A stretch of DNA of 49,467 nucleotides from a virus, in IMG/VR virus record IMGVR_UViG_3300035701_003621, positions 1 through 49,467 of that record. The stretch is one strand, 5' to 3'. Numbering within the stretch: position 1 is the stretch's first letter; each line of letters starts with the position of its first letter. Positions 22,612-49,467 of the stretch are shown here, one piece after another. Made by a program: the position numbers and the translations under genes. The notes beneath the pieces are model-generated. The model was not told the origin of the DNA, ran no database searches, and worked only from the letters and a program-made list of their open reading frames with translations.

Positions 22612-23733
22612 TTAAATAGAAAAACAGAACTCCCCATCCTCTGTTACTCCAATTCCTCCCCAATATCTTACAAATCTACCCCCTGCTTTATTTTTAATCA
22701 CAGGAACAAATACATCCTCTCCCAATCTTTCCAATACACAAGCCCATATCATATTAAAATTTGTTCCCACTAGTGAAGCAACCATTGTTCCTTGAATTCT
22801 TGGATTACATTCAACTAATTTAGGAACCTTATCTTCATCCTCCCTAAATTGAAAACCAAAACAATATGATAAATTTAAAACATTAGCTAAATCTAAACAT
22901 TGTTTTTCCATCTTTTTATTGGTTATGATGGTTGTATCAAATGATATTCCTGATCTTACTTCATCTCTTCTCCTTGGAATCACCAAACTTCCCTGTCTTC
23001 CCTTCCATACATCAACCGTATATTCTATTCCTGGAAGATATTCCATGGCAATCAAAGTAGGAAACTGAGGACATTTCTGCAATGTATCCAATAAAAAGGA
23101 AAGAGTACATTCTCCAACAGGTGGTTGATCTTTAAGAAAATCAGTAAGAGGATTCTCACTAACAATTCTTATCCCTCTTCCTCCATTGGAAATAGGGGGT
23201 TTGACAACAAACGGTTTATCAGGATAACCTAAATATTTTGCTGTATAAACTAAATCATTTGCATTATCAAATTCTTTATACTTTGCCATTGGAATATCTA
23301 AACTAGAAGCAATATCATATAATATCTTCTTATCATTCACAGAAGATATATCATTACAATTATTTAATGGACAAGCAAGTCTGTCTAAAATGTCCTTCGT
23401 TCCTATACTAGGAAGAATAATACTTTCATTTATTGTTTGTGGGAGAATAACATCTACACATTCTGCTTCACAGATATGTTCTATTTGTCTAATATATTCT
23501 TCACTATCATTGAATGGATGTGGGACCACATAAAATTTATCTACTAAAAATTTACCCACCGCTTTTTCATTAAGATCAGTTCCTATTATTCTCAAATTGG
23601 TACATTCACAAGCACCTTGTTTCAAAGCAAACAGAGTTCCTACAGTTCCTGGGGCACCCACCCCTGTAAGAAGAACAGTTGTAAAATTCCTTAAATGACT
23701 TTTACTTTGTGCTCTAATGTAGTTGACCTTCAT
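22612..23733 (-). CDS. ATP-grasp ligase (carbamoyl-phosphate-synthase-like)
   Basis: 373 residues from the ATG at 23733 (AGGGG upstream); an in-frame ATG at 23778 lacks a ribosome site. VLLTGVGAPGTVGTLFALK is the Rossmann-like N-terminal domain, PFVVKPPISNGGRGIRIV the ATP loop, LIAMEYLPGIEYTVDVWK the central lid, and KLVECNPRIQGTMVAS the catalytic E-x-N-P-R. The family joins a carboxylate to an amine at the cost of ATP. Copies in surface-sugar clusters are common, with substrates rarely known. An amide linkage on a sugar acid is one possibility. Confidence 0.85.
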   Translation of the reverse strand: MKVNYIRAQSKSHLRNFTTVLLTGVGAPGTVGTLFALKQGACECTNLRIIGTDLNEKAVGKFLVDKFYVVPHPFNDSEEYIRQIEHICEAECVDVILPQTINESIILPSIGTKDILDRLACPLNNCNDISSVNDKKILYDIASSLDIPMAKYKEFDNANDLVYTAKYLGYPDKPFVVKPPISNGGRGIRIVSENPLTDFLKDQPPVGECTLSFLLDTLQKCPQFPTLIAMEYLPGIEYTVDVWKGRQGSLVIPRRRDEVRSGISFDTTIITNKKMEKQCLDLANVLNLSYCFGFQFREDEDKVPKLVECNPRIQGTMVASLVGTNFNMIWACVLERLGEDVFVPVIKNKAGGRFVRYWGGIGVTEDGEFCFSI

Positions 23734-23749
23734 GACAATCCCCTTAATA

Positions 23750-23887
23750 TCATTTCCTCTTTTTTGGTTTCCATCCATGCTCTATTGCGTTTAAAACACG
23801 AAGATACTTTTTCGGATTCTTCGACTTCCCAACAACCTTACCTGTTTTCTTCAATACAACCGCATTTCCTCTAATCTTATAGGGCAT
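23750..23887 (-). CDS. Small basic phage protein, 45 residues
   Basis: A short frame with AGGATGAA before its ATG (23885-23887). It reads MPYKIRGNAVVLKKTGKVVG and ends in a Lys/Arg-rich tail with KKYLRVLNAIEHGWKPKKRK. Short proteins of the MPYK...KKYLRALN type are frequent in phages and may bind nucleic acid. The last 28 nt before the ATP-grasp start overlap nothing, so both fit one message. Confidence 0.62.
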   Translation of the reverse strand: MPYKIRGNAVVLKKTGKVVGKSKNPKKYLRVLNAIEHGWKPKKRK

Positions 23888-30587: not shown

Positions 30588-31085
30588 TTATACCTTCTTC
30601 ACCAACTCAAAGACTGCTTTGGATGTATTCTCATTTTCTATTGTACATACATGAAACCCCAACTTTGCAAAGAACATCAGGGATGGTTTGTTCCAAGCAT
30701 AGACTTCTGCTACAAGGGTATGCAGATTATAAAGAGAGGATATGTGTTTGATGATCTCAAAACAAGAACCAACAAAATAAGAAGAATTGAGAATATAATT
30801 ATCCCTATATCGAATCACCCTTCCACATTTGGCTCTATCACCTTGCATGACATTATAAACAGAAAATTGCCCAACTGGAATGTAGTTTGTTGAAGATGCC
30901 TCATATTGCTCTTCCTCTACAATGAACATAAAGTCTTTTGAGTTCTGCAAATTTCCAATGATCCAAGTTAATGTCTGTTCCTCTGTAACTGCCCCACTAT
31001 CAAAAAAACAATGTCTATTCTCATTCCTATGTTTTGTAAGCAATGCAGCATCATTCTTTGTTACTAATCTATATCTCAGGCTCAT
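30588..31085 (-). CDS. GNAT-family N-acetyltransferase, PseH-like, paralogue of 2548-3030
   Basis: 165 residues: YRLVTKNDAALLTKHRNEN, TLTWIIGNLQNSKDFMFIV, VGQFSVYNVMQGDRAKCGR and NKPSLMFFAKLGFHV. The order and the NxxSxxFxxxLGF ending match PseH, which acetylates a 4-amino-sugar made by a DegT aminotransferase. That aminotransferase is the directly preceding gene, joined by a 4-nt overlap, so the two probably act in sequence. Confidence 0.82.
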   Translation of the reverse strand: MSLRYRLVTKNDAALLTKHRNENRHCFFDSGAVTEEQTLTWIIGNLQNSKDFMFIVEEEQYEASSTNYIPVGQFSVYNVMQGDRAKCGRVIRYRDNYILNSSYFVGSCFEIIKHISSLYNLHTLVAEVYAWNKPSLMFFAKLGFHVCTIENENTSKAVFELVKKV

Positions 31086-32278
31086 AAGTTCCCCTCATAA
31101 AATTCGTGTATTTTAGAGCAAATAAATTCTACGTCTTCACGAGTAAGTCCTGGATACAAAGGCAGTGTCAGGATGTGAGGGAAGAGTCCCTCAGCTACAG
31201 GAAGTACTGGTCTATTTCCATACACAGAATATAAATGTAGAGGCTTATAGTGAACCGAGCTCATTATTCCATTCTCTTTAAGGAAGACTGCTAAACCATC
31301 TCGATTATAACATTTAATACAGAACAAATGCCATGAAGATTGTTCAAGAGGAAGATTGAGCTTGTCACCAAGAGGAGGAAGAAATATTTTTGTTGGTATT
31401 TTGCTTTGCTTGTCAGGTAAAGATAAATCCAATAATTCTTTATGATACCAACCTACTCTTTCTCTTCTTAATCTATTAGATTCTTTTAACTTGTCCAACT
31501 GAACAAGTCCAATTGCTGCATTAATATCACACATATGAGATTTTTCGCCTATAGAATCTACAGAATATTCCCACCAGTAAGACTTATTACTGTCCGTGCG
31601 TTCCCAGGTTCCCTTGTCTATGCCAAGCCACCTGAGCTTCTTTGCCTTGTCTGCAAGTTCCTTATCTCTCACCACCAATGCTCCTCCCTCTCCCATGCTC
31701 AAGTTCTTAACTGCATGAAACGAGAAGCAACCTATGGAATCAGAAGAAATTGGTAAAGAGGAACCCTTGTAATAGGCTCCTGCTGCGTGAGCACAATCCT
31801 CAATGATCTTAATTTTTCCAGGATTAATACCAAGATCAGCACACCTCTCACTTATGGCAGTTTCCAGCATATTGACATTCACTGGTCTACCAGAATAATG
31901 AACAGGAATGATTGCTTTTGTCCTTGGAGTGATTCTACTCACGGCATCCTGGATGTCCATATTAAGTGTGATTGGGTCCACATCACAGAATATCGGTTCA
32001 GCCAGATTGTACTTGACCACATGAGCAGTAGACACAAAGGTGATTGTAGGGACAATGACTTCATCACCATGATTCACTCCTATTAACTTGAGTGCCATGT
32101 CCAATGCAGCAGTACATGAATTAAGTCCAACAACAAACTTACCCTTGCTGTATTTTTCTGCAAACTCTTTCTCGAACTGTTCTGTCTTGGGACCAAGACC
32201 TGTCCAGCCTGTACGGATCACCTCTGCTGCTGCCTCTACTTCTCGCTCATCATAAAAAGGACGGAAAACAGGGATCAT
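31082..32278 (-). CDS. DegT/DnrJ/EryC1 sugar aminotransferase (PLP)
   Basis: 398 residues. IPVFRPFYDEREVEAAAEVI, GWTGLGPKTEQFEKEFAE and VGLNSCTAALDMALKLIGV are the N-terminal signature. IIEDCAHAAGAYYKG contains the PLP-binding Asp, and SFHAVKNLSMGEGGALV the Schiff-base Lys. GIMSSVHYKPLHLY and LTLPLYPGLTREDVEFI are the C-terminal hallmarks. The enzyme puts an amino group on a keto nucleotide sugar from glutamate. The keto-sugar source (a 4,6-dehydratase) is not in this window and may come from the host. Confidence 0.92.
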   Translation of the reverse strand: MIPVFRPFYDEREVEAAAEVIRTGWTGLGPKTEQFEKEFAEKYSKGKFVVGLNSCTAALDMALKLIGVNHGDEVIVPTITFVSTAHVVKYNLAEPIFCDVDPITLNMDIQDAVSRITPRTKAIIPVHYSGRPVNVNMLETAISERCADLGINPGKIKIIEDCAHAAGAYYKGSSLPISSDSIGCFSFHAVKNLSMGEGGALVVRDKELADKAKKLRWLGIDKGTWERTDSNKSYWWEYSVDSIGEKSHMCDINAAIGLVQLDKLKESNRLRRERVGWYHKELLDLSLPDKQSKIPTKIFLPPLGDKLNLPLEQSSWHLFCIKCYNRDGLAVFLKENGIMSSVHYKPLHLYSVYGNRPVLPVAEGLFPHILTLPLYPGLTREDVEFICSKIHEFYEGNL

Positions 32279-41765: not shown

Positions 41766-41963
41766 TTATTGTTTTTCAATTGTTAAAATGTCTTTTCCCT
41801 CTTTCAAAAAATTCCTGAGCACAAGGGTAATAAAAGTAGAAATTGGTATATCATACTCATCCTTCTTTATTTTCAACTCCTCAAAAAGATCAGGTGGAAC
41901 CATATATGGAAACAACCTGTTCTTTGTTTTCCTTTTCTTACTAATCGGATCAGATACACTCAT
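41766..41963 (-). CDS. Ribbon-helix-helix protein, 65 residues
   Basis: Starts MSVSDPISKKRKTKNRLFPY at the ATG at 41963 (GGGAGAAAAAC upstream). RLFPYMVPPDLFEELKIKK and YDIPISTFITLVLRNFLKEG read as strand, helix, turn, helix of the RHH fold. The N-terminus is basic. Overlaps the end of the Thg1-like gene by 14 nt. With the gene at 41512 it makes a pair of small regulators. Confidence 0.68.
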   Translation of the reverse strand: MSVSDPISKKRKTKNRLFPYMVPPDLFEELKIKKDEYDIPISTFITLVLRNFLKEGKDILTIEKQ

Positions 41964-42654
41964 TGTTTTTCTCCCTTTCATATAATGAAGTAAACTCTTC
42001 ATACTTAAAAATAGGGGCTGGTTTAATTTTCCATCCTTCTTCCTCTCTTGTGATAATAGAACCATTCTTCCATTTGTCGTCAAGATCAGCCCAGTTCAAT
42101 CCTTTATCATAAATCATATCATGCATATCAGCCTGTGTCTTCTTGTTTAATTCTTTATGTGAATACAAAGATTGAGCTAACATCTGAACTGAATTACGAA
42201 TCCAATCCTTTTGTCTCCAAATAAAGTAATTAGCAACTTCTTCAACTGGGATATTAAATGCACGAGAATCAAAGATACCTATTCCCTCATAAGACTCATT
42301 AAAAAAATCAGTAAATCGAGTGGAGGCAATCGAAGCACTTACAGATACCATTTTCTGAATATTATAATCAAACCATGCTTCTGTAGTTAAAGTATCATAA
42401 TCAGAAAGAAGAAGAGAAATTTCATCTGACTGAATATAAGCTATTTTAACTCCTTGGATTTGTTCACAAAGACCTTCAGCAGCCATGTTCATACACCAAG
42501 AAAAATCACCATCAAAAGGTTTCTTACATTTTCTTGTCAAAGTATGAAATGCTTTCCCATCAAGTCTAAGAATAACTGGAGTCCTCCTGGTCAATTTCAT
42601 TCTGTATCTATTCTCATAGTTTTCCTTCATCCTGTCACCAAGGGAATCTTTCAT
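41950..42654 (-). CDS. tRNAHis guanylyltransferase-like enzyme (Thg1/TLP)
   Basis: 234 residues. VILRLDGKAFHTLTRKCKKP has the DGKxFH metal and nucleotide motif, IAYIQSDEISLLLSDY the second acidic site, and VSASIASTRFTDFF, IFDSRAFNIPVEEVANYFIW and RQKDWIRNSVQMLAQSLYSH the Thg1 middle domain. These enzymes add nucleotides in the reverse direction (3' to 5'), either G-1 to tRNAHis or repairing truncated 5' ends of RNAs. A phage copy may mend host or phage tRNAs. No tRNA gene is visible nearby. Confidence 0.9.
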   Translation of the reverse strand: MKDSLGDRMKENYENRYRMKLTRRTPVILRLDGKAFHTLTRKCKKPFDGDFSWCMNMAAEGLCEQIQGVKIAYIQSDEISLLLSDYDTLTTEAWFDYNIQKMVSVSASIASTRFTDFFNESYEGIGIFDSRAFNIPVEEVANYFIWRQKDWIRNSVQMLAQSLYSHKELNKKTQADMHDMIYDKGLNWADLDDKWKNGSIITREEEGWKIKPAPIFKYEEFTSLYEREKNNECI

Positions 42655-46400: not shown

Positions 46401-46424
46401 AATGCTTTCCCCCTTATTAAAATC

Positions 46425-46453
46425 ATTATAACATACTTTTCAAACAAACTCAA
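46425..46453 (-). promoter_or_regulatory. Promoter of the leftward gene unit
   Basis: -35 TTGAGT (46453-46448), 17-nt spacer, -10 TATAAT (46430-46425). It is followed by an AAGGGGGAAAG ribosome site and the start codon at 46400. Confidence 0.75.
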
Positions 46454-46854
46454 TAAAAAATATACATTAATCATATTAATTTTCCCTAAATTCACTTTTA
46501 AATAAAAATAAAAAACGAGGATTAACCTTTCCCTATACTACAACTCAATCCCCTTACCCCCATATATAAGCATTGTAACATACATAGTGTTAGTGTGCAG
46601 AAAGAGTGTTAGTGAGTTAAGATAATATACAAACAGGATGCTCATTCATCATTCCTATCCCTAACTGTTAATACAATGCAGATGAACAAGGTTTAATCAT
46701 AGGTGTTAATGAAGTATGTTCCTTTTAAAATAAAGTGTGTTATTAAATAATCTCTTAAACAGTTAATACCTCGTGTTGAAATAACCCAACCTACCGAAAT
46801 TACACAACAATCGACACCCCCTACCCCGACACACCGAAATTATTAGTAAATTCA

Positions 46855-46872
46855 ATCGGTTACAAAACCGAT
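46855..46872. repeat. Inverted AACCGAT motif
   Basis: ATCGGTT and AACCGAT face each other across a 4-nt gap. Single direct copies of the same core occur at 46971-46980 and 47041-47050, so this looks like a double site for the same binding protein. Confidence 0.5.
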
Positions 46873-46930
46873 CAAAAAAAACATCAATAATTTCAACATG
46901 TTAAAATCAAAAAAAAATATCGGATAACAT

Positions 46931-47059
46931 ATTGTAATCATTACACATTTTTGAAAAGTATCAATTTTTGTAACCGATTGATATTATTGAAACATTACAT
47001 ATTCATTTCAAAATGAATATGTAATGTTATAAAAAAATGATAACCGATTGTAATCATTA
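46931..47059. repeat. Repeated ATTGTAATCATTA and TAACCGATTG motifs
   Basis: ATTGTAATCATTA at 46931-46943 and 47047-47059; TAACCGATTG at 46971-46980 and 47041-47050. At the right-hand site the two motifs overlap (TAACCGATTGTAATCATTA). The copies flank the 38-nt palindrome. Confidence 0.55.
46991..47028. repeat. Perfect 38-nt palindrome
   Basis: AACATTACATATTCATTT and its exact complement AAATGAATATGTAATGTT with CA at the centre. There is no T-run in the direction of either transcript, so it is not a terminator. A dimeric DNA-binding protein or an initiation hairpin is more likely. Confidence 0.7.
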
Positions 47060-47081
47060 ATGATTTTCATACATTTTTCTC

Positions 47082-47110
47082 TTGCATGTATTGTATATGT
47101 GTGATACTAT
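47082..47110 (+). promoter_or_regulatory. Promoter of the rightward unit
   Basis: -35 TTGCAT (47082-47087), 17-nt spacer, -10 TACTAT (47105-47110). The -35 is identical to that of the RHH gene promoter at 41700-41728. The GAGGAGATTTAAC site and ATG of the first gene follow about 50 nt later. Confidence 0.65.
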
Positions 47111-47169
47111 ATATTTAATGAAAAAAAGGATGCAGGCGGGCATGAAGAGCCGGTCCGAGGAGATTTAAC

Positions 47170-47583
47170 ATGGCAAAAGCAGCGAAAAAAGCATCAGCGG
47201 CGAAAAAGGAGTTTTTCGGAACTTTGGCGACAGCTCAGATATCTGTCCCGGTCGTACCAATCGACCTCAGCCCCCTGGCCGAACCGATCACCATCCCGAC
47301 CGAAACCGTCCTGGTTGACAAGCTGGTCGGGAAGCAGGGGTTGCGCAAAGTTCACAGCCTGGCCAACCTCTCCGAGAAAGCTGGCTCAGCAGCAGCGATC
47401 ATGCATCAGTTGCTCAAGGCCGGCCAGGGCACGATGAGCGCTTCCGAATGCTTGCGCAAGATCCGGGCCGCCGGCATCGAGTCAATGGCAGCCAAAACCG
47501 ATGAGCAGGTCCTAGCATACATCCGCAGCGAGCGCGCATGGATCAAGCGCACACAGAACTTCGAGGTTACGATCACAGCTTAG
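47170..47583 (+). CDS. Unknown basic protein of a duplicated family (LSEKAGS family)
   Basis: 137 residues. The first 15 are Lys/Ala-rich (MAKAAKKASAAKKEFFGTLA), then a Pro-rich stretch, then a core SLANLSEKAGSAAAIMHQLL, GTMSASECLRKIRAAG and VLAYIRSERAWIKR. The core is all helical and basic, as in small DNA-binding proteins. It is repeated in the truncated gene at 49238-49467. The gene is clearly richer in G and C than its AT-rich surroundings, which hints at a different history. Family unknown. Confidence 0.78.
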   Translation: MAKAAKKASAAKKEFFGTLATAQISVPVVPIDLSPLAEPITIPTETVLVDKLVGKQGLRKVHSLANLSEKAGSAAAIMHQLLKAGQGTMSASECLRKIRAAGIESMAAKTDEQVLAYIRSERAWIKRTQNFEVTITA

Positions 47584-47597
47584 CTGATCGGTCGATC

Positions 47598-47625
47598 AAA
47601 GAGCTCACAAGGATGTGAGCTCTTT
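47598..47625 (+). terminator. Rho-independent terminator
   Basis: AAAGAGCTCAC/GTGAGCTCTTT, 11 bp (47598-47608 with 47615-47625), loop AAGGAT, followed by CC. It begins 14 nt after the stop of the first rightward gene. Confidence 0.8.
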
Positions 47626-47786
47626 CCTTGGACCGATGAGTTTGCTCTTTTAAGATTCAGAATATTGGCGGGACGGCACGGTGGGGCTTCTTTGGAAGCA
47701 CGGAAAAGAAATTCTTTCAAAGGGACCTTCTTTTCAAGCAACCTTTTTCAGAAAATTCTTTCAAAGCAAGTTTCTGTCAAAGCAGT

Positions 47787-47917
47787 TTTTCAGCCCTTGC
47801 TGAAAATGTCAGAATTCTTCACTAGAAGAAAAACAGCCCCTGTTGAAAATGTCAGAAAAATTCTCACAAAGCAGATTTTCAGCCCCTGTTGAAAATGTCA
47901 GAAAAATTCTCACAAAG
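47787..47917 (+). repeat. Three copies of a hairpin-forming repeat
   Basis: Copies start near 47791, 47834 and 47880. Copies 2 and 3 are identical over 38 nt (beginning CAGCCCCTGTTGAAAATG and ending CTCACAAAG), copy 1 is a variant. Each makes a hairpin: TTTTCAGC/GCTGAAAA around CCTT in copy 1, with a G-U pair in copy 3 (GTTGAAAA) that keeps the RNA stem. Copies are separated by about 8 nt. Not CRISPR. Confidence 0.6.
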
Positions 47918-47960
47918 AAAAATTCTTCACCAGAAAAAATAAACAAAATAAAATCTCCTG

Positions 47961-47990
47961 TTTACAAACTGTTATGTTTTATGATATAAT
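47961..47990 (+). promoter_or_regulatory. Promoter of the 28-codon gene and structured RNA
   Basis: -35 TTTACA (47961-47966), 18-nt spacer, -10 TATAAT (47985-47990). The transcript would begin at about 47997 and run through the small gene into the structured region. Confidence 0.65.
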
Positions 47991-48018
47991 AAAAACAGAA
48001 AAAAAAGGACAAAACAAA

Positions 48019-48105
48019 ATGACAGAAAGAATGGTTGATCAACTGATCCATAAAGCTCATGGTATGAACTTTATCAGTCGGTTGAGCAACAAGTTCAATC
48101 GTTAA
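48019..48105 (+). CDS. 28-residue basic peptide
   Basis: MTERMVDQLIHKAHGMNFIS then RLSNKFNR, behind AAAAAAGGACAAAAC. It can form one amphipathic helix. Its stop comes immediately before the structured RNA region. It may be a leader peptide or a true miniprotein; nothing similar is recognised. Confidence 0.5.
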   Translation: MTERMVDQLIHKAHGMNFISRLSNKFNR

Positions 48106-48890
48106 GCTCTTTGACAATGGGGTTTAGAAGACCCCTACATAATGGCGAGTTCCAAATGGAACGCTACTTTGAGATTGGAATCTTTCTGATCTAGATGTTA
48201 TGCTGCGAGTTTATAGCAGATGTAGTCCTTGTAATCCCTATACCAGTTGATATGTATAGTCCATCGTGAGTTGAAAAGCGGACGTGCTGCGAGTTTATAG
48301 CAGATTAAATTAAATGCCAATAAAATGGTTCTTGATCAGAGTCAGTAGGGTGTAGAAAGCAGAAGGCCTTGTGAAGATCACTAAGAAGGAAGAAGGCTCA
48401 AGGTAGACAGAAAAGCCGTATGTAGAAATAATGAGACGTCCTGTTGGTGAAAGATAGTGCACTAGACGTATGTGTAGGATTGCGTGATAGGTAGGGAAAC
48501 AGATCCTGTAGCTTATCACAGTGATATGTAATGGATTGGGAATCGGTGATGTTAGTTGGGGAGAATAAACCGATTCTATTCGAAAAGCGAGTCGAGTAGC
48601 TGATGGCTGCAAGATGACAGCCCTAGAGAGGACGTAAATGGCAAGTTATATCTTAGTATCGTGTCTGTCTTCCAGCAAGAGAAATCCTATGATAGCAACA
48701 CTGTGGATAACAGAGGTAGTGTTGCGCTACAAACAACGAAGGCTGGAAACAAGACAGATCATGTCAAAAAAAGACATGAGGATGCAGAACCCATCGCAGA
48801 AAAGATATAAACTGAGCTAGGATTGCATAGTCAGTCCGCTGGGAGAAAGTGACAGGCTTCTCCCAGTCATTGGTTAGTCAATCAAAAATC
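48106..48890 (+). ncRNA. Large structured non-coding RNA (GOLLD/ROOL-like candidate)
   Basis: About 780 nt without a supported gene but full of exact stems in the rightward strand. Examples: GGGGT/ACCCC (48119-48135), GTTCC/GGAAC (48149-48162), CTATAC/GTATAG (48238-48259), ACGTC/GACGT (48436-48469), GAATCGGT/ACCGATTC (48540-48576), GGCTG/CAGCC (48605-48622), TCTGTCTT/AAGACAGA continuing as CCAGC/GCTGG (48664-48758) around GCAACACT/AGTGTTGC (48695-48725), TCATGTC/GACATGA (48759-48779), CTGGGAGAA/TTCTCCCAG (48839-48866). Loops are purine-rich with many GAAA. A 21-nt unit TGCTGCGAGTTTATAGCAGA(T) occurs twice (48201 and 48285). Length and style fit the ornate phage RNAs GOLLD and ROOL; class membership is inferred only from style and size. 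Confidence 0.72.
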
Positions 48891-48907
48891 TTTGAAAGGA
48901 GATGAAG

Positions 48908-49114
48908 ATGATAACAGTGAAAAACAGCTACTTCAAGACAAGTCCTGGTTTGATGTCAGGCTTGGACTTGAACCAGTATCATCTACAAGAGGTCTTCTTC
49001 AGCAAGTGTGACTTTCACCCATGTTGTGAAGACCTGGTCAGGAAGAACCTGACCAACTGGACCTTTGATGACTGTGACGTGCCGTTCTACATCAAAGGGT
49101 TGCAGACATTCTAG
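48908..49114 (+). CDS. Unknown small protein, 68 residues
   Basis: Starts MITVKNSYFKTSPGLMSGLD at 48908; AAAGGAG is 6 nt upstream of this ATG but too close to the one at 48902. It continues LNQYHLQEVFFSKCDFHPCC and LTNWTFDDCDVPFYIKGLQ. Four Cys and one His in a C-x3-H-x-CC pattern and a C-terminal D-D-C-D could hold metal. It is the first gene downstream of the structured RNA. Confidence 0.62.
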   Translation: MITVKNSYFKTSPGLMSGLDLNQYHLQEVFFSKCDFHPCCEDLVRKNLTNWTFDDCDVPFYIKGLQTF

Positions 49115-49237: not shown

Positions 49238-49467
49238 ATGTTTGACTTAAACGCAGCAGCAGCTTTAACAACTGGAACAGTTGGAACATCCAAGTCAGGT
49301 AAGGTCCGCTCTTTGGAAACCCTGTCAGAGAAAGCAGGCTCCGTTGCTGCTATCATGCACAAGATGCTCAAAGATGGCGATGGTGTCATGTCAGCTTCCG
49401 CTTGCTTGGCAGCAGTCCGCAAAGCCGGTCTCGCATTGCACAAGGATGACAAGCAGCTCCTCTCATA
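49238..49467 (+). CDS. Second member of the LSEKAGS family, cut by window edge
   Basis: 76 residues are visible from the ATG at 49238 (AAAGGGAGATAAC upstream); the frame is still open at the last base. SLETLSEKAGSVAAIMHKML, GDGVMSASACLAAVRKAGL and HKDDKQLLS match the core of the protein at 47170-47583. The Lys-rich N-terminus of that copy is replaced by MFDLNAAAALTTGTVGTSKS. Both copies flank the structured RNA. Confidence 0.75.
   Translation, partial: MFDLNAAAALTTGTVGTSKSGKVRSLETLSEKAGSVAAIMHKMLKDGDGVMSASACLAAVRKAGLALHKDDKQLLS

What the first reader, a model, noticed from the sequence alone, without database searches (positions are those of the whole stretch)
48106..48890. Large ornate structured RNA in a phage right-end region
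Seen directly: about 780 nt without a supported gene on either strand, preceded by a promoter and a 28-codon gene, containing at least ten exact stems of 5-9 bp, some clearly nested (TCTGTCTT/AAGACAGA and CCAGC/GCTGG around GCAACACT/AGTGTTGC), purine-rich loops and a 21-nt unit used twice. Known: phages carry giant ornate RNAs (GOLLD, ROOL), some of which assemble into multimeric cages. Inference: this is a divergent member or a new class of that kind.
Basis: partly seen in the sequence, partly recalled or inferred. Interest (0 to 1): 0.88.

Follow-up and report, generated by a model that had tools for sequence, protein, structure and literature searches.

The report
Orphan large structured phage RNA candidate
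A 785-base gene-free stretch of an uncultured phage probably makes a large, intricately folded non-coding RNA that matches no known RNA family, but with no relative found its structure rests on one sequence and its function is a guess.

Summary
48106-48890 is gene-free on both strands, lies just downstream of a strong sigma70-like promoter and a 28-codon ORF, and contains the named nested stems and an exact 21-nt repeat. Its + strand folds better than shuffles (z about -3), with a three-domain, long-range architecture. These single-sequence signals are modest, yet they exceed those of two known large RNAs run through the same test (a genuine ROOL and the ICP1 phage lncRNA).

Membership in GOLLD, ROOL, OLE, HEARO or any other Rfam family is not supported: no match even at E<=10, while the ROOL control scores 130 bits. 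No homologue turned up in phage, plasmid, IMG/VR or genome collections, nor in 100 related phage contigs, so covariation cannot be tested. There is no tRNA in the window and no terminator behind the RNA.

Best reading: an orphan, roughly 0.8-kb structured non-coding phage RNA (or structured leader), similar in kind to the ICP1 and phage K lncRNAs and GOLLD/ROOL, but not a shown member. Function and multimerisation are untested.

The parts
47961..47990 (+). sigma70-like promoter TTTACA-18-TATAAT with TG before the -10; predicted start of transcription near 47997
   Evidence: 11 of 12 matches; consensus match only, not shown to be active
48019..48105 (+). 28-codon ORF MTERMVDQLIHKAHGMNFISRLSNKFNR, AAGGA 9 nt upstream; no relatives known
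   Evidence: translation inferred
48106..48890 (+). gene-free, predicted structured RNA (about 785 nt)
48112..48880 (+). weak end-to-end closing stem UGAC (48112-48115) / GUCA (48877-48880), p 0.66; not above chance (20 of 60 shuffles as good)
48135..48425 (+). domain I, closed by CTACAT/ATGTAG, TGGC/GCCG and the 10-bp helix 48164-48173/48397-48406 (p 0.91-0.99)
48201..48221 (+). 21-nt unit copy 1: hairpin CTGC-GAGTTTATA-GCAG
48285..48305 (+). 21-nt unit copy 2, identical
48436..48635 (+). domain II, closed by ACGTCCT/AGGACGT (p 0.97); inner helices GTGATAGGT/GCTTATCAC and GGAATCGGT/ACCGATTCT
48806..48813 (+). TATAAACT, exact complement of both repeated loops (AGTTTATA at 48208-48215 and 48292-48299); overlaps a domain III helix strand, so it would be an alternative or intermolecular pairing
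   Evidence: 0.014 occurrences expected, but chosen after the fact
48820..48867 (+). two 3' hairpins GGATTG/CAGTCC and the 9-bp CTGGGAGAA/TTCTCCCAG
48902..49114 (+). 70-aa ORF with strong Shine-Dalgarno (GAAAGGAG), no terminator between it and the RNA; no relatives found

Best explanation
48106-48890 encodes a large structured non-coding RNA of an uncultured tailed phage, made as part of a transcript of about 0.9 kb or longer that starts near 47997. Shown: gene-free stretch, promoter-like site, and above-chance, strand-biased, long-range predicted folding into three domains. Inferred: that it is transcribed, folds this way in the cell, and acts as RNA, accumulating during infection like the ICP1 and phage K lncRNAs and GOLLD/ROOL. 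The most likely mode of action is as a stable RNA scaffold, possibly self-assembling through the two identical 9-nt hairpin loops, which can pair with TATAAACT in domain III of the same or another molecule; that last step is speculation.
For: No gene in any frame. Strong promoter-like site just upstream on the same strand. MFE z about -3, excess of long exact stems, and 34 pairs with p>0.9 spanning >150 nt vs 10 in shuffles on the + strand but 10 vs 10 on the reverse complement. Calibration: the same tests give MFE z -1.4 for a ROOL (verified) and -1.65 for the ICP1 lncRNA region. Base composition (A .326 C .161 G .262 T .251) is close to that ROOL (A .326 C .171 G .227 T .276). Precedent: the most abundant ICP1 transcript is an ~800-nt RNA in an ORF-less gap of a phage that has no tRNAs (PMC7567579).
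Against: No homologue anywhere searched, hence no covariation. Single-sequence folding statistics are weak evidence: six other block-strands of the 90 tested in the window have a lower z, some of them coding. The reverse complement also has MFE z about -2.2. No intrinsic terminator after the RNA, whereas the ICP1 region appears to end in one (sequence). The 5'-3' closing stem is not above chance. No expression data.
Confidence: 0.6

Rival explanations
1. Long structured 5' leader: the RNA is not an independent molecule but the leader of the 70-aa gene and the operon behind it, controlling its expression (attenuation, translational control or mRNA stability), perhaps with the 28-codon ORF as a leader peptide.
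For: No terminator-like site on the + strand between the RNA and the 70-aa ORF; that ORF has a strong Shine-Dalgarno shortly after the last structured part; the small upstream ORF resembles a leader peptide.
Against: 785 nt with three closed domains is far larger than known cis-regulators; no Rfam riboswitch or leader matches; no alternative terminator/antiterminator pair found.
Confidence: 0.2
2. Unstructured or decayed spacer: remnant of lost genes between two transcription units, whose folding signal is chance plus composition.
For: Only moderate z-scores, several other blocks as extreme; no relatives to show constraint; the neighbouring 47321-48105 block, full of repeats, folds even better.
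Against: Excess of long exact stems and of long-range high-probability pairs, the latter on one strand only; an exact 21-nt hairpin repeat; a dense phage genome rarely keeps 785 nt of idle sequence behind a strong promoter; no trace of coding on either strand.
Confidence: 0.15
3. A highly diverged GOLLD or ROOL.
For: Size (GOLLD ~800 nt), phage location, ROOL-like base composition.
Against: No CM match at E<=10 with lax filters against a 130-bit positive control; no tRNA in the window; no local similarity to ROOL.
Confidence: 0.05

Closest known systems
ICP1 gp139-gp140 intergenic lncRNA (PMC7567579)
   Same: about 800 nt, ORF-less gap in a lytic phage, no tRNA nearby, no Rfam match above threshold in the region scanned
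   Different: no sequence similarity above shuffles; the ICP1 region appears to end in an intrinsic terminator, this one does not; ICP1 expression is measured, here it is unknown
ROOL RNA (RF03087)
   Same: phage-borne, 500-700 nt, multi-domain fold, similar base composition
   Different: no CM match and no tRNA in the window; cage formation untested
GOLLD RNA (RF02032)
   Same: about 800 nt, phage or prophage, ornate multi-domain fold
   Different: no CM match, including to its universally conserved 3' region; no tRNA in the window
Phage K lnc001/lnc002 (PMC9241854)
   Same: phage lncRNAs, likened to GOLLD/ROOL by their authors
   Different: located next to tRNA genes; no similarity found by blastn over the phage collection

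Membership tests
ROOL (RF03087) | match to the family covariance model above 99.1 bits | tested here: not met
   no match even at E<=10; control ROOL of pMP118 gives 130.4 bits
ROOL (RF03087) | often near tRNA islands in phages or prophages | tested here: not met
   no tRNA in 49,467 bases, but the record is cut 577 bases downstream
ROOL (RF03087) | octameric RNA-only cage | not testable with these tools
   needs mass photometry or cryo-EM
GOLLD (RF02032) | match to the covariance model, in particular the universally conserved 3' region | tested here: not met
   no GOLLD positive control was run, the method's control was ROOL
GOLLD (RF02032) | about 800 nt, phage-borne, non-coding | tested here: met
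   (phage portal and capsid genes; no ORF in the stretch)
GOLLD (RF02032) | expression rises during lysis; 14-mer cage | not testable with these tools
   needs infected cultures and cryo-EM
OLE, HEARO and self-splicing introns (all in Rfam) | covariance model match | tested here: not met
   no match from any of these families
Large structured phage lncRNA (descriptive kind, ICP1-like) | 0.5-1 kb ORF-less stretch with own promoter in a phage | tested here: met
Large structured phage lncRNA (descriptive kind, ICP1-like) | abundant discrete transcript | not testable with these tools
   no RNA data for this uncultured phage
Large structured phage lncRNA (descriptive kind, ICP1-like) | conserved secondary structure by covariation | tested here: inconclusive
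   no homologue found

The most novel reading that the evidence does not exclude
A new class of large ornate phage RNA, unrelated to GOLLD and ROOL, whose monomers assemble through two identical hairpin loops (GAGUUUAUA) pairing with UAUAAACU in domain III of a neighbouring molecule.
Probability: 0.15. Interest if true: 0.85.

Novelty: new variant of a known kind. Interest (0 to 1): 0.5.

Why it matters
Few large structured RNAs are known in phages, and GOLLD, ROOL and the ICP1 and phage K lncRNAs have no established function. An additional, sequence-unrelated one would suggest that phages have invented such RNAs more than once, and would give another test case for whether multimeric RNA cages are general.

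Tried and rejected
Rfam at gathering and at lax thresholds: nothing. blastn in phages and plasmids: nothing at 0.01, only 22-33 nt chance pieces at E<=10. Exact 19-mer and 15-mer of the repeat in IMG/VR: the 31 loci with the 15-mer show no alignment beyond the repeat itself and look like chance, many being copies of one sequence. Two-copy spaced pattern in genome contigs and IMG/VR: unrelated tandem repeats or chance. Neighbouring proteins gave no relatives. Portal and capsid relatives were used to reach 100 phage contigs, but none holds the RNA by blastn, nor do 50 of them by a single-sequence covariance model of domain III (one hit at E 0.01 among 50 records taken as chance). Recoded gene: rejected, all three stop types occur in all + frames. 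GGTAGTGTTGC shared with ICP1: not above shuffles. The end-to-end closing stem I first took as a boundary mark is not above chance. My codon score for the 28-codon ORF was computed one base out of frame and is not used.

Full report
What is there. The window is a virus record of 49,467 bases. It is a tailed phage: portal (phrog_145), major head protein (phrog_212), scaffold (phrog_206) and many glycosyltransferases, most genes on the - strand. From 47170 on, the genes are on the + strand. 47170-47583 encodes a 137-aa protein, followed by a perfect 12-bp hairpin at 47598-47625. Then come three repeats with hairpins (47709-47935), a strong promoter-like site (47961-47990), a 28-codon ORF (48019-48105), the region in question, a 70-aa ORF (48902-49114) and a 49% identical paralogue of the 137-aa protein, cut by the end of the record.

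The observation. 48106-48890 is not coding on either strand: 9-24 stops in every frame over 48000-48902, and the codon score of the best + strand ORF is in the wrong-frame range. Folding is better than in dinucleotide shuffles (z -2.4 to -3.2 in four runs). There is a roughly twofold to threefold excess of long exact stems. Confident long-range pairs are in excess on the + strand (34 vs 10+-11.5, 3 of 60 shuffles as extreme) but not on the reverse complement (10 vs 10). Locally, in 130-nt windows, the folding is ordinary: the signal is long-range, organised as three closed domains (48135-48425, 48436-48635, 48639-48819) followed by two hairpins.

How strong is that? As a yardstick I ran the same tests on the ROOL of Ligilactobacillus salivarius pMP118, confirmed here by Rfam at 130 bits, and on the ORF-less ICP1 interval that yields that phage's most abundant transcript (PMC7567579). 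Their MFE z-scores are -1.4 and -1.65, with no excess of long stems. So single-sequence folding has little power for this kind of RNA, and the finding does better than two real ones. It is still not proof: in the window itself the block ranks 7th of 90 block-strands, and some of the better ones are coding.

Relatives. None. Rfam is silent at E<=10 apart from sub-threshold chance matches to unrelated families. blastn in 50,697 phage and 72,556 plasmid records is silent. Pattern scans of IMG/VR and of 84,980 genomes give chance matches only. Through portal and capsid alignments I reached 100 contigs of related phages (best capsid identity 58%); none carries the RNA by blastn, and a domain III covariance model found nothing credible in 50 of them. 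The neighbouring small proteins are orphans too. Covariation, the decisive test, therefore cannot be done here.

Interpretation. The best-supported reading is a large structured non-coding RNA of the phage, similar in kind to the ICP1 and phage K lncRNAs (PMC7567579, PMC9241854) and to GOLLD/ROOL (PMC12286853), but not a member of any family tested. The main rival is a long structured leader of the 70-aa gene, because no terminator separates the two. A plain spacer is less likely but not excluded. One detail worth testing: the loops of the two identical 21-nt hairpins contain AGUUUAUA, whose exact complement UAUAAACU lies at 48806-48813 (0.014 expected; noticed after the fact). That strand also forms the helix closing domain III, so the loop pairing would be alternative or intermolecular. 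This is a hypothesis, not a result.

Scores. Confidence that a functional large structured RNA is there: about 0.6 as an independent RNA, plus 0.2 as a leader. Interest 0.5: a specialist would want the homologues and a gel before being surprised.

Noticed in passing
window 46401-47169: 769-nt AT-rich gap between divergent gene blocks with several interleaved inverted and direct repeats (TAACCGATTG/CAATCGGTTA; 28-nt inverted repeat 46981-47038): candidate replication origin or control region.
   Followed up: no
window 47709-47935: Three repeats of about 46 nt, each with a TTTTCAGCCC-TGYTGAAAA-like hairpin, just upstream of the promoter; the 785-nt block holding them has the lowest folding z of the blocks tested (-5.1).
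   Followed up: partly
window 47170-47583 and 49238-49467: Two paralogous small proteins (49% identical) flanking the RNA, with no relative in any collection searched.
   Followed up: partly
window 41950-42654: Phage-encoded tRNA-His guanylyltransferase (Thg1) although the window has no tRNA gene.
   Followed up: partly
window 22612-23778, 31082-32278 and many others: Unusual load of glycosyltransferase, aminotransferase and ATP-grasp genes in a phage: probable surface sugar modification cluster.
   Followed up: no
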